Origin: Mycolicibacterium arabiense | Lineage (GTDB): Bacteria; Actinomycetota; Actinomycetes; Mycobacteriales; Mycobacteriaceae | Length of the DNA: 64,000 bases | Assembly: GCF_010731815.2 (NCBI RefSeq) | Contig: NZ_AP022593.1 | Location: forward strand, 1,550,001-1,614,000 | Direction of reading: 5' to 3' | Shown: one piece after another, positions 45,944 to 49,616 of the stretch | How the letters are laid out: each line of letters starts with the position of its first letter | How positions within the stretch are numbered: the first letter of the stretch is position 1 | Program-made: the position numbers and the translations under genes | The notes under the pieces: model-generated | What the model was told of the DNA's origin: nothing | The model's input: only the letters and a program-made list of their open reading frames with translations | The model's database searches: none

Positions 45944-46576
45944 GTGGGAGATCTACTGGTCATCCTGGCGATCCTGCTGGGCCTCGCCGCCGTCGTGGTC
46001 TTCGTCATGGCACTGCGGCGACCCAAGAAGGGCGCCCCGAAGCAGCGAGAGGATCCGCTGCAGTTCGCCTCGCAGACCGCCACGTTCGGCCCCACCCAGC
46101 TCGGTCCCGGCGCCATCGTCAGCCACGGCAGCACCGACTACGTCGTCCGCGGTTCGGTCACGCTGCGCCAGGGCCCGTTCGTGTGGTGGGAGCACCTCCT
46201 CGAGGGCGGCAAGGGCGACGACTCCGCCTCCGGCACCCAGCCGGTGTGGTTCAGCGTGGAGGAGGACGAGGGCCGACTGGAGCTGGTGACGTGGTTACGC
46301 CGCAACGACCTTCAACTCGAGCCGGGCGGCGAGCACGTCGTCGACGGCATCCGCTTCCGCGAGACCGAGCGCGGCAGCGCCGGCTACACGACCGAGGGCA
46401 CCACCGGGCTGCCCGCAGGCGGCGAGGTCGACTTCGTCGACTACGCCAATGACGACGAGACCAAACTCCTCGGCTTCGAACGCTGGGCGCCCGGGATGCC
46501 ATGGGAGATCTCGGTCGGCACCAAGGTGCGGCCCGGCGAGCTGACCGTCTACCCGGCTCCGCCGGCCGGCGCGTAG
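45944..46576 (+). CDS. DUF4178 protein, first gene of the DUF350/aminopropyltransferase cassette
   Basis: A 210-residue protein with one N-terminal transmembrane helix (residues 3-23, GDLLVILAILLGLAAVVVFV), a basic stop-transfer stretch and a soluble DUF4178 domain. The domain includes GAIVSHGSTDYVVRGSVTLRQG near residue 57 and WWEHLLEGG near residue 81. DUF4178 is a beta-rich domain that co-occurs with DUF350, PspA-like and polyamine-related genes. GTG start at 45944 with a GGGGG stretch before it. Nine bases separate it from the next gene. Confidence 0.82.
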   Translation: MGDLLVILAILLGLAAVVVFVMALRRPKKGAPKQREDPLQFASQTATFGPTQLGPGAIVSHGSTDYVVRGSVTLRQGPFVWWEHLLEGGKGDDSASGTQPVWFSVEEDEGRLELVTWLRRNDLQLEPGGEHVVDGIRFRETERGSAGYTTEGTTGLPAGGEVDFVDYANDDETKLLGFERWAPGMPWEISVGTKVRPGELTVYPAPPAGA

Positions 46577-46585
46577 GTCACGCCC

Positions 46586-47089
46586 TTGCCGTTGCACGAA
46601 CTCGCAGTCATACCCACCGACATCAGCGGCGCCGTCCTGCGGCTGGCACTCAACGCCGCTGCCCCACGTCCGCTGGCCACGCACCGCCTCGACCACCCCC
46701 GCGGCGGAGCGCTGACGCTGGGCATCCTCGGCGCCTCGCACGTCATCACCGCCGAGCACGACGGCGCACCCTTCTCCGAGCAGGTCTCGTGCATCGCGCC
46801 GACCTCCGATGACCACCTGCCTCACCATGCCGACGCCCCCGGCTACGAATTGACGTCGAGCAGCACCGAACACGACGAGCCGTCGTTCCGGGCGCTCGCG
46901 GCCGAGCTGCGCAGGTGCTGCGCGGACGACGCCGGCTGGCTCGGCGGCACGTTCCCCGGTGACGACGCGGCGCTGACCGCGCTCACGGCCGCACCCGACG
47001 GCCCGGGCTGGCGCTGGCGGACGTGGCATCTGTACCCCGCCGCGCACGGCGGGACCGTCGTGCACACCCAGAGCAGGTGGCAGCCGTGA
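46586..47089 (+). CDS. DUF2617 protein
   Basis: A 167-residue soluble protein, probably cytosolic, matching DUF2617: LHELAVIPTDISGAVLRLAL at the start, LTLGILGASHVI near residue 43, WRTWHLYPAAHGGTVVHTQSRW at the end. Function unknown; the family is essentially actinobacterial. The only plausible starts are TTG 46586 or TTG 46592. The stop overlaps the next gene's GTG as GTGA, tying it to the cassette. Confidence 0.78.
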   Translation: MPLHELAVIPTDISGAVLRLALNAAAPRPLATHRLDHPRGGALTLGILGASHVITAEHDGAPFSEQVSCIAPTSDDHLPHHADAPGYELTSSSTEHDEPSFRALAAELRRCCADDAGWLGGTFPGDDAALTALTAAPDGPGWRWRTWHLYPAAHGGTVVHTQSRWQP

Positions 47090-47529
47090 GCCGCGGGCGG
47101 CTGTTCCTGCTGTCCGGCGTGCTCGCACTCGCTGCCGTGCTGTGCCTCGCCCTCGGCGCGAGCGCGACGCCGGACATCCGGTCCCACATCGACCGCACCT
47201 ATCAGCGGTACGCCACCACCGCAGACGCCAACCTGTACGAGTGCTCGGGCCGACCGGCCAGCGTGGCCGACGAACTGTCGGCCGTCCGCGAGCCCCACGC
47301 TCGCGCCTCCGATCGCGGCACCGAGTACCTGCGCTACGACGACGACATCGTCGCGATCGGTCCGGATGGCAACCGGCCGTGCACGATTCGCGTCGAGGAC
47401 ATTCGTCGCGGCGGGTACAGCGGGGGCGCCTTCATCTTCCTCGGTCCGGGGTTCTTTCCTGGATCACCGGCGGGCGGGTCCGGCGGCGGAACGGGCGGCG
47501 GCTCCGGCGGACCCGACGGCCCCAAGTAG
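47086..47529 (+). CDS. DUF4247 exported protein
   Basis: A 147-residue protein with a signal peptide or membrane anchor (residues 3-27, GRLFLLSGVLALAAVLCLALG), an extracytoplasmic DUF4247 domain with two cysteines (NLYECSGRP near residue 50 and NRPCTIRVED near residue 98) that could form a disulfide, and a glycine-rich tail (GGSGGGTGGGSGG). GTG start overlaps the DUF2617 stop. Function unknown. Confidence 0.8.
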   Translation: MSRGRLFLLSGVLALAAVLCLALGASATPDIRSHIDRTYQRYATTADANLYECSGRPASVADELSAVREPHARASDRGTEYLRYDDDIVAIGPDGNRPCTIRVEDIRRGGYSGGAFIFLGPGFFPGSPAGGSGGGTGGGSGGPDGPK

Positions 47530-47562
47530 CGCCCCACCCGGACCAAGACATAGGAGACACCG

Positions 47563-48021
47563 ATGCATCAGGCCCTCGTGGAGTTCGGATCCCTCAGCGC
47601 CGAGTCGACGCTGCAGAACGTCGTCGCGGCGGTGCTGTACTTCGCCGTCGGAGTGGTGGTGCTCGGCGTTGGCTTCGTCGTGGTCGACCTGCTGACCCCG
47701 GGCAAGCTGCGTCGCCTGGTGTTCGTCGAGTACCGGCCGAACGCGGTGGCCGTCGCGTCGGCCATGTACGCCGCACTCGCACTGGTGGTCGTGTCGTCGA
47801 TCCTGGCAAGCGCCGATGAACTGGCACAGGGGCTGTTCGACGCCCTGGTCTACGGATTGATCGGCGTGGCGCTGCAGGGCGCGGCTCTCGCGGTGCTCGA
47901 AGCCGTGGTGCCCGGACGGTTCCGCGACCTCGTCGAGGCCGAGCGGCTGCACCCGGCGGCGATCGCGACCGCCGTGATCATGCTGGCCGTGGGAGGGGTC
48001 AACGCCGCGGCCCTGTCGTGA
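47563..48021 (+). CDS. DUF350 integral membrane protein
   Basis: A 152-residue protein with four transmembrane helices (about residues 20-42, 65-87, 92-115 and 131-150) and short loops, as in E. coli YjfL, the DUF350 prototype. DUF350 genes recur beside polyamine-related ATP-grasp or aminopropyltransferase genes and PspA-like envelope-stress genes, as I recall. The stop overlaps the next gene as GTGA, which points to a physical complex with the membrane-bound aminopropyltransferase. Confidence 0.85.
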   Translation: MHQALVEFGSLSAESTLQNVVAAVLYFAVGVVVLGVGFVVVDLLTPGKLRRLVFVEYRPNAVAVASAMYAALALVVVSSILASADELAQGLFDALVYGLIGVALQGAALAVLEAVVPGRFRDLVEAERLHPAAIATAVIMLAVGGVNAAALS

Positions 48022-49616
48022 CCGTGGCGGCGGATCCGGCGGGGTCGCCAGGGGTGTCCGAGCCAGGCGCCGAGCCCACGCGTTCCCCGCGATGGCGCTC
48101 GGTACTGCTCGCGGCCGTGGCCGCCTGCGCGGCGTGCGGATTGATCTACGAGCTTGCGCTGCTGACGCTTTCGGCGAGCCTCAACGGCGGCGGGATCGTC
48201 GCGACGTCGCTGATCGTCGCCGGGTACGTCGCCGCCCTCGGGGTGGGCGGCCTGCTGGTCAAGCCCCTGCTGGGCCACGCCGCCATCACCTTCATCGCGG
48301 TGGAGACGCTGCTCGGCATCATCGGCGGGCTGTCGGCGGCGGTGCTGTACGTGACGTTCGCCTTCATCGGCAGTTCGACCTGGGTGCTCGTGCTGGGCAC
48401 GGCGCTGATCGGCGTCCTCGTCGGTGCAGAGGTGCCGCTGTTGATGACGTTGCTGCAACGCGGGCGCACCGCGGGTGCGACCGACGCGGGCCGGGTACTG
48501 GCGAACCTGAACGCAGCCGACTACCTGGGGGCACTGCTCGGCGGGCTGGCCTGGCCGTTCCTCGTCCTCCCGACGCTCGGGATGATCCGCGGCGCGGCGG
48601 TCACCGGCATGGTCAACCTCGTCGCGGCGGCGGTGGTGGCGGTGTTCGTGCTGCGGTCGGTGGTCGGCGTCCGCCAGCTCGCCGGCGCGCTGTGCGTGCT
48701 CGCGGCGGCCTTCGTGACGCTGGCCGGGGTGATGGTGAGCGCGAACGGGATCGAGACCACGTCGCGTCAGCGTCTGTACGCGGATCCGATCATCGCCTAC
48801 GAGCGCTCGGCCTACCAGGAGATCGTCGTGACTCGGCGCGGATCGGACATGCGCCTGTATCTCGACGGCGGCCTGCAGTTCTCGACCCGAGACGAGTACC
48901 GCTACACCGAGAGCCTGGTGTACCCGGCACTCGGCGCAGGCGCGCGGTCGGTGCTCGTGCTGGGCGGCGGCGACGGCCTCGCCGCGCGGGAACTGCTGCG
49001 TGAACCCGGGATCGAGGACATCGTCCAGGTCGAACTCGACCCAGACGTGGTGCGCCTGGCCCGCACGACGATGCGCGAGGCCAACGCCGGCTCGCTCGAC
49101 GACCCCCGGGTGCGGGTGGTCATCGCCGACGCCATGACGTGGCTGCGCGATCCCGACCCGACGTTGCTGCCCCCCGGCGGGTTCGACGCGGTGATCGTCG
49201 ACATGCCGGATCCGGACAACCCGGTCCTGGGCAGGCTGTATTCGACGGAGTTCTACGCTCTGCTGACCCGCGTGCTGGCCCCCGACGCACTGGTCGTGGT
49301 GCAGGCCGGTAGCCCGTACTCGACGCCGATGGCGTTCTGGCGCACGGTGTCGACGATCCGGTCGGCGGGGTACGCGGTGACGCCGTACCACGTGGACGTC
49401 CCGACGTTCGGCGACTGGGGCTTCGCGTTGGCCCGGCGCGGCACCGAACCCCCGATGCCGAAGATGCCCAACGACGTTCCGCCGCTTCGGTTCCTGGACC
49501 AGAGCGTGCTCGACGCCGCGACGGTGTTCGGTGGCGACGTCGCCCCCGTCACGCTCGAGCCCTCGACGCTCGACAACCCGCGCGTCGTCGAGGACATGCG
49601 GCGCGGTTACCGCTAG
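48018..49616 (+). CDS. Membrane-bound spermidine-synthase-like aminopropyltransferase
   Basis: A 532-residue protein with about seven transmembrane helices (residues 28-245) fused to a C-terminal spermidine-synthase fold (about 265-500). Methyltransferase-like motif VLVLGGGDGLAARELL (about residue 313), acidic residue in VQVELDPDVV, and VIVDMPDPDNPVLGRLYSTEFY (about residue 394) replaces the usual D-S/T-D-P. It would transfer an aminopropyl group from decarboxylated SAM, or a related group. No SAM decarboxylase or other polyamine gene is in the window. Last gene of the five-gene cassette; shares the CTAG stop with ligA. Confidence 0.88.
   Translation: MTVAADPAGSPGVSEPGAEPTRSPRWRSVLLAAVAACAACGLIYELALLTLSASLNGGGIVATSLIVAGYVAALGVGGLLVKPLLGHAAITFIAVETLLGIIGGLSAAVLYVTFAFIGSSTWVLVLGTALIGVLVGAEVPLLMTLLQRGRTAGATDAGRVLANLNAADYLGALLGGLAWPFLVLPTLGMIRGAAVTGMVNLVAAAVVAVFVLRSVVGVRQLAGALCVLAAAFVTLAGVMVSANGIETTSRQRLYADPIIAYERSAYQEIVVTRRGSDMRLYLDGGLQFSTRDEYRYTESLVYPALGAGARSVLVLGGGDGLAARELLREPGIEDIVQVELDPDVVRLARTTMREANAGSLDDPRVRVVIADAMTWLRDPDPTLLPPGGFDAVIVDMPDPDNPVLGRLYSTEFYALLTRVLAPDALVVVQAGSPYSTPMAFWRTVSTIRSAGYAVTPYHVDVPTFGDWGFALARRGTEPPMPKMPNDVPPLRFLDQSVLDAATVFGGDVAPVTLEPSTLDNPRVVEDMRRGYR

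What the first reader, a model, noticed from the sequence alone, without database searches (positions are those of the whole stretch)
45944..49616. Five-gene DUF4178-DUF2617-DUF4247-DUF350-aminopropyltransferase cassette inserted between the ACT gene and ligA
Seen: five same-strand genes with gaps of 9 and 33 bases and two GTGA overlaps; products are a membrane-anchored DUF4178 protein, a soluble DUF2617 protein, an exported DUF4247 protein with two cysteines, a four-helix DUF350 protein, and a seven-helix protein fused to a spermidine-synthase domain. Known: DUF350 is also found in the E. coli yjf group next to a PspA-like protein and a glutathionylspermidine-synthase-like ATP-grasp enzyme. 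Inference: a membrane complex that makes or attaches an aminopropyl/polyamine group at the envelope, perhaps tied to envelope stress. No SAM decarboxylase is nearby and the usual catalytic D-S/T-D-P is DMPDPDN, so the reaction may be new. In M. tuberculosis, as I recall, Rv3013 and ligA are adjacent, so the cassette is accessory.
Basis: partly seen in the sequence, partly recalled or inferred. Interest (0 to 1): 0.85.

Follow-up and report, generated by a model that had tools for sequence, protein, structure and literature searches.

The report
Operon with a candidate new decarboxylase
A small group of genes in this actinobacterium carries a membrane enzyme that needs a special sulfur-containing donor molecule, yet the genome lacks the known enzyme that makes this donor; a neighbouring gene of unknown function is present or absent in just the pattern expected if it makes the donor instead, which would be a new kind of enzyme.

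Summary

The new result concerns the donor. The genome has no SpeD, the known SAM decarboxylase. In two samples, 107 genomes carry the 7TM enzyme: 96 have DUF2617, the other 11 have SpeD, none lacks both. In the three SpeD genomes examined only DUF2617 is missing from the operon. Outside Actinobacteria 51 of 80 loci carry SpeD within 5 kb, none DUF2617.

Best explanation: DUF2617 supplies dcSAM in place of SpeD, perhaps as a new, non-homologous SAM decarboxylase. The chemistry is unproven; no homology to SpeD was found. Haloferax, where the dcSAM source is a stated open question (PMC5178350), also has DUF2617 and no SpeD.

The parts
45944..46576 (+). DUF4178 protein, 210 aa, one N-terminal membrane segment
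46586..47089 (+). DUF2617 protein, 167 aa, soluble; proposed supplier of decarboxylated SAM (candidate SAM decarboxylase); invariant D12, S51, H52, E65, W144, W147, H148, Y150 and near-invariant C69
   Evidence: pattern with SpeD
46736..46741 (+). codons of the invariant Ser51-His52 (LGASH motif) of DUF2617; Ser51 is the candidate pyruvoyl serine if the enzyme is of that type (inference)
47086..47529 (+). DUF4247 protein, 147 aa, N-terminal leader or anchor, Cys53 and Cys99 in the mature part; GTGA overlap with the gene before
47563..48021 (+). DUF350 membrane protein, 152 aa
48018..49616 (+). 7TM-fused polyamine aminopropyltransferase (NF002956), 532 aa; helices in residues 24-251, aminopropyltransferase domain about 252-514
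48963..48977 (+). codons of GGGDG (residues 316-320); Asp319 corresponds to the Asp that excludes the SAM carboxylate and selects dcSAM
   Evidence: role from PMC1282579 and PMC10349129 (passages)
49200..49214 (+). codons of DMPDP (residues 395-399), the catalytic D-x-x-D-P with both Asp kept

Best explanation
The operon encodes a membrane-bound aminopropyl-transfer unit. [quoted passage not shown] DUF2617 supplies the dcSAM: it takes the place of SpeD, most likely as a SAM decarboxylase not homologous to SpeD. DUF350, DUF4178 and the exported DUF4247 protein form or serve the membrane complex. Shown by computation: the aminopropyltransferase fold of the model, the intact donor and catalytic residues, the absence of SpeD, the exact complementarity of DUF2617 and SpeD in the genomes sampled, the physical linkage, and the enzyme-like invariant residues of DUF2617. 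Inferred: that DUF2617 acts on SAM, its chemistry (Ser51 pyruvoyl or a His/Glu site), the acceptor, and the complex.
Against: No homology of DUF2617 to SpeD was found: no AdoMet_dc hit in 30 members at E up to 10, where HMMER's filters drop most matches above 0.1; profile comparisons not significant and equal to the best of 60 shuffled decoys; no AdoMet decarboxylase listed among the fold matches of a confident model. Independent losses number about two inside the actinobacterial clade and one rests on moderate support, so the count of genomes overstates the evidence. Two genomes have both genes. Planctomycetes carry distant DUF2617-like genes not seen beside the enzyme; one of those genomes (G326) also has the enzyme with SpeD. 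No activity, substrate or acceptor is shown. Class 2 (eukaryotic-type) decarboxylase models were not searched.
Confidence: 0.55

Rival explanations
1. DUF2617 is a partner or regulator of the actinobacterial enzyme and its absence from SpeD genomes is a lineage accident; the enzyme gets its donor by another route or uptake.
For: Only about two independent losses inside the actinobacterial clade; two genomes carry both genes; the DUF2617 fold matches no known enzyme clearly.
Against: All 11 enzyme genomes without DUF2617 have SpeD and none of 107 lacks both; all other cassette genes stay when DUF2617 goes, in the three read; invariant D, S, H, E, H, Y residues look catalytic.
Confidence: 0.22
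2. The SpeE-like domain uses SAM itself, as a methyltransferase like fungal NHMT or as a 3-amino-3-carboxypropyl transferase, and DUF2617 does something else, for example decarboxylates the product.
For: No SpeD in the genome; NHMT is a 7TM protein with a SpeE-like domain that methylates (PMC10349129, passages).
Confidence: 0.12
3. The enzyme is an ordinary spermidine synthase acting on putrescine, as database names say, with dcSAM from DUF2617.
For: NCBIfam and PDB relatives are polyamine aminopropyltransferases.
Against: The halophile 7TM homologues are reported to lack putrescine-binding residues and H. volcanii to lack spermidine (PMC5178350, passages); Li et al. 2019 (recalled, not held) report that such fusions do not replace spermidine synthase in E. 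coli; a W-G pair near the acceptor region (467-468) is identical in 56 of 56 here, where the two Thermus sequences aligned have F-G.
Confidence: 0.12
4. DUF2617 is a very distant homologue of SpeD that has kept the pyruvoyl serine (Ser51-His52) and the catalytic Cys69.
For: S51 and H52 in 109 of 109, C69 in 108 of 109; SpeD has S-H and a C 20 residues on, DUF2617 18 residues on, with an acidic residue four before the Cys in both; in the DUF2617 model the Ser lies in a turn between two strands, as I recall it does in SpeD.
Against: No significant profile or fold similarity; SpeD His72 of alignment A3 has no counterpart at the same distance.
Confidence: 0.12

Closest known systems
PspA-linked operon groups of PMC11237479 (7TM-spermine synthase, DUF350, DUF4178, lipoprotein; variant with DUF4247 and DUF2617)
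   Same: The same families; the DUF4247/DUF2617 variant is described there, DUF2617 is predicted to be an enzyme with two conserved His, an Asp and a Glu, and AdoMet decarboxylase is mentioned as a further gene of such operons (passages read).
   Different: In the passages I read DUF2617 is given no reaction and is not linked to the supply of dcSAM; DUF4247/DUF2617 are treated as replacing the CesT/Tir-PspA pair, not SpeD.
SpeD plus 7TM-SpdSyn plus DUF350 clusters (Li et al. 2019, Biochem J 476:2579; recalled, cited in PMC11237479, not held here)
   Same: Same membrane-fused aminopropyltransferase and DUF350; a role outside polyamine synthesis proposed (recalled).
   Different: There the donor comes from SpeD; here there is no SpeD and DUF2617 stands in the operon.
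Halophile 7TM SpeE homologues HVO_0255 and HVO_B0357 (PMC5178350, passages)
   Same: 7TM-fused SpeE-like proteins without AdoMet decarboxylase in the genome; DUF2617 found in the H. volcanii control genome.
   Different: The gene neighbourhood in haloarchaea could not be read here; the paper leaves the dcSAM source open.
Fungal NHMT, 7TM histidine methyltransferase (PMC10349129, passages)
   Same: 7TM domain plus SpeE-like soluble domain.
   Different: NHMT lost the dcSAM-selecting acidic residue; this family keeps it.
SpeD, AdoMet_dc (PF02675)
   Same: Presence and absence complement DUF2617; a local S-H and C resemblance.
   Different: No sequence-profile or fold relationship detected.

Membership tests
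7TM polyamine aminopropyltransferase NF002956 (48018-49616) | score over curated cut-off | tested here: met
   633 bits against 472
7TM polyamine aminopropyltransferase NF002956 (48018-49616) | aminopropyltransferase fold with intact GGGDG and D-x-x-D-P | tested here: met
7TM polyamine aminopropyltransferase NF002956 (48018-49616) | N-terminal multi-helix membrane domain | tested here: met
   hydropathy; model helices 24-56, 60-80, 82-117, 121-149, 154-210, 218-240; the exact number of membrane passes is not settled
7TM polyamine aminopropyltransferase NF002956 (48018-49616) | dcSAM-dependent transfer activity | not testable with these tools
   needs assay
PMC11237479 operon variant DUF4247/DUF2617 | DUF4178, DUF2617, DUF4247, DUF350 and 7TM enzyme together on one strand | tested here: met
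PMC11237479 PspA operon groups | PspA and CesT/Tir genes in the operon | tested here: not met
   the five genes are DUF families and the enzyme; flanks are the ACT gene and ligA; PspA elsewhere in the genome was not searched
SpeD / AdoMet_dc PF02675 (for DUF2617) | family profile match | tested here: not met
   no match at E up to 10 in 30 members; profile-profile comparisons not significant or equal to a decoy
SpeD / AdoMet_dc PF02675 (for DUF2617) | AdoMet decarboxylase fold | tested here: inconclusive
   model pLDDT 91.8; no clear PDB match of any kind
SpeD / AdoMet_dc PF02675 (for DUF2617) | pyruvoyl serine, catalytic His and Cys (S63, H68, C83 of T. maritima, PMC10407285, passage) | tested here: inconclusive
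   invariant S51, H52 and near-invariant C69 in similar order, but no significant alignment
SpeD / AdoMet_dc PF02675 (for DUF2617) | SAM decarboxylation and self-cleavage | not testable with these tools
   needs protein
NHMT-type 7TM methyltransferase | loss of the acidic residue in GxG[D/E]G | tested here: not met
   Asp319 kept, Asp in 56 of 56 rows
classical speD-speE spermidine operon | speD in the genome | tested here: not met

The most novel reading that the evidence does not exclude
DUF2617 is a new, non-homologous SAM decarboxylase, outside the SpeD superfamily, used by actinobacteria and haloarchaea to feed dcSAM to a membrane-bound aminopropyltransferase with an unknown, non-polyamine acceptor.
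Probability: 0.42. Interest if true: 0.88.

Novelty: new variant of a known kind. Interest (0 to 1): 0.74.

Why it matters
If DUF2617 makes dcSAM, it fills a stated gap: the dcSAM source for 7TM SpeE homologues in halophiles without AdoMet decarboxylase (PMC5178350), and likewise in the 94 sampled actinobacterial genomes that have the enzyme and DUF2617 but no SpeD. It would give a function to a large unknown family (2727 proteins with E up to 0.001 among the 8000 candidates scored), add a second evolutionary origin of SAM decarboxylation, and question the reading of mycobacterial 'speE' genes as ordinary spermidine synthases. The prediction can be tested with one complementation experiment in E. 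coli K-12.

Tried and rejected
Homology of DUF2617 to SpeD: three profile comparisons gave weak alignments of three different regions (P 0.054, 0.3, 0.036; the observed score 16.8 was reached by one of 60 column-shuffled decoys); the Pfam scan was negative; fold searches listed no AdoMet decarboxylase (the rows listed were weak: hot-dog, KICSTOR, Rieske oxygenase, START or Bet v 1-like), which does not exclude one. No PDB sequence relative of DUF2617 at E up to 10.

Rejected: 'new reaction because of DMPDPDN'; 'cassette absent from M. tuberculosis'; NHMT-like methylation (residue kept). On plasmids: no match for DUF2617, 11 records for the enzyme at E up to 1e-20. Of the four plasmid loci read, three (L108, L109, L111) have SpeD near the enzyme and one (L110, Tritonibacter) does not; that plasmid record has no SpeD at all and its chromosome was not searched. 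The single-seed models for DUF4178 and DUF4247 found nothing outside Actinobacteria, though L108 has two annotated DUF4178 genes, so they were too weak and I draw nothing from that. Four of the 12 well-flanked loci without SpeD (L126, L128, L148, L182) were not followed to the whole genome. Of the 11 SpeD-only actinobacterial enzyme genomes the operon was read in three. The NF002956 model also rings in both DUF2617-bearing control genomes, but is over its cut-off in only one of the 14 controls, not named, so the 7TM enzyme in C. glutamicum is not individually shown; for H. volcanii it rests on PMC5178350. The haloarchaeal neighbourhood could not be reached.

Counts: the second half of G204's DUF2617, given as two rows, was left out (45 of 46 rows used). 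In one search the class and family samples were merged; 11 enzyme genomes are in both and were counted once. The P values printed ignore phylogeny and are not used as evidence.
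Full report
What is there. Pfam names DUF4178, DUF2617, DUF4247, DUF350 and Spermine_synth; the last protein is over the NCBIfam cut-off for NF002956, the membrane-fused polyamine aminopropyltransferase. 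I call it the 7TM enzyme below.

What is already known. PMC11237479 (passages read) describes this operon kind: a 7TM-spermine synthase with DUF350, DUF4178, a lipoprotein and CesT/Tir-PspA, and a variant with DUF4247 and DUF2617, with accessions that I recall as M. tuberculosis. PMC3726780 (passages) shows Rv2599 is a DUF4247 protein; PMC11841054 (one passage) calls Rv2601 speE. The cassette is therefore not confined to this locus. In the own genus 10 of 15 sampled genomes have it. In three other own-genus loci (L004, L030, L037) the ACT gene is next to it; in four others (L003, L028, L029, L033) none was seen in the about 1.5 kb read on each side.

The missing donor. The own genome (6.45 Mb, two contigs, 100% complete) has no match to the SpeD family. 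The question is where dcSAM comes from. [quoted passage not shown]

DUF2617 replaces SpeD. In 197 genomes of the class, DUF2617 occurs in 42, the 7TM enzyme over cut-off in 45 and SpeD in 7. All 42 DUF2617 genomes have the enzyme; the three enzyme genomes without DUF2617 (G050, G216, G187) all have SpeD. In 201 genomes of the own family the enzyme occurs in 73, DUF2617 in 64, SpeD in 22. 63 enzyme genomes have DUF2617 and no SpeD, the other 10 (all genus g2) have SpeD and no DUF2617, none has both or neither. The one extra DUF2617 genome, G433, has its enzyme gene in two frames. Merged, 107 enzyme genomes: 96 with DUF2617, 11 with SpeD only, 2 of the 96 also with SpeD (G023, G221), 0 with neither.

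Position and gene content single out DUF2617. 45 of 45 DUF2617 genes of the class sample lie upstream of an enzyme gene on the same strand, 159-1997 bp from it. In G050, G216 and G187 DUF4178, DUF4247, DUF350 and the enzyme are all present in the usual order and only DUF2617 is missing (the other eight SpeD-only genomes were not read). In three of six loci read from genus g4 (large genomes, probably Streptomyces by inference; L050, L101, L106) only DUF2617 and the enzyme are left; the other three (L051-L053) are second copies with DUF350 and DUF4247. In G216 SpeD is fused to a soluble SpeE-like domain, beside a gene that looks to me like a PLP decarboxylase. A tree of 60 enzymes has the 26 actinobacterial ones as one clade (100/100), with G050+G216 nested beside the DUF2617-bearing G248 (99/96) and G187 on a separate branch inside a group of moderate support (80/83). 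This suggests that DUF2617 was lost twice, each time in a SpeD genome.

Outside Actinobacteria. 80 enzyme loci from genome contigs, by their titles all from other phyla and the best of a capped list, have SpeD within 5 kb in 51, DUF350 in 66, DUF2617 in none. Many contigs are short; of 52 loci with at least 5 kb on both sides 40 have SpeD. Eight of the other 12 were searched as whole genomes and all eight have SpeD elsewhere (the weakest of them 41.5 bits against a cut-off of 25). DUF2617 was absent from 26 of 27 such genomes; the exception, a planctomycete (G326), has a distant relative, with no cassette gene in the 11.6 kb around it. Such relatives occur in 5 of 59 genomes of that phylum, G326 included, and keep Ser51 in 2 of 5, Glu65 in 5 of 5; they probably do something else. 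A Novosphingobium plasmid shows the SpeD form of the operon with annotation. Among 14 named control genomes DUF2617 occurs in C. glutamicum and H. volcanii, neither of which has SpeD.

DUF2617 as an enzyme. In 109 family members D12, S51, H52, E65, T131, W144, W147, H148 and Y150 are invariant and C69 is missing once, in a genome (G237) whose enzyme gene has an in-frame stop. The model is confident (pLDDT 91.8) and mostly beta; no PDB fold matches clearly. Ser51-His52 in a turn between two strands, an acid four residues before Cys69 and the Ser-Cys distance recall SpeD, whose S63, H68 and C83 are essential (PMC10407285, passages), but profile tests give no support for homology. So either the likeness is convergent or accidental, or homology is beyond reach.

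Conclusion. The most economical reading is that DUF2617 feeds dcSAM to the 7TM enzyme where SpeD is absent. The step from 'replaces SpeD' to 'decarboxylates SAM' is inference. In the held library six papers hold at least one of PF10936, DUF2617, Rv2598, COG4262 and PRK03612; of these I read passages of PMC11237479 and PMC13118837 only. A search for phrases about a missing dcSAM source gave three papers, of which PMC5178350 is the relevant one. None of the passages I read proposes this role. Most subscription papers and all bioRxiv preprints are outside that library, and Li et al. 2019 was not held.

Noticed in passing
L061 (G237) 7520-9058: The 7TM enzyme gene has an in-frame TGA at L061:8096-8098, and this genome's DUF2617 is the only one of 109 without Cys69; a decaying cassette or an assembly error.
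   Followed up: partly
G433:C24:68898-70440: The 7TM enzyme gene is split over two frames although the DUF2617 gene beside it is open.
   Followed up: no
L196, L198-L201 (planctomycetes): Distant DUF2617-like genes in 5 of 59 genomes of the phylum of G326, no 7TM enzyme within the short loci read; Ser of the SH pair kept in 2 of 5.
   Followed up: partly
L047 5831-7054 (G216): SpeD fused to a SpeE-like domain in an actinobacterium, next to a gene that looks like a PLP amino acid decarboxylase.
   Followed up: no
L043, L044 (G221, G023): The SpeD homologues of these two genomes have Tyr where the other 12 SpeD compared have the catalytic Cys; their function may have changed.
   Followed up: no
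window 48906-48908, residue 297 of the enzyme: Own and mycobacterial enzymes have R-Y-T-E where other relatives have R-Y-H-E (T in 14, H in 42 of 56 rows).
   Followed up: no
L051-L053 (G282, G242, G167): Second copies of a DUF2617-DUF350-enzyme cassette with DUF4247, in genomes that also have the two-gene DUF2617-enzyme pair.
   Followed up: no
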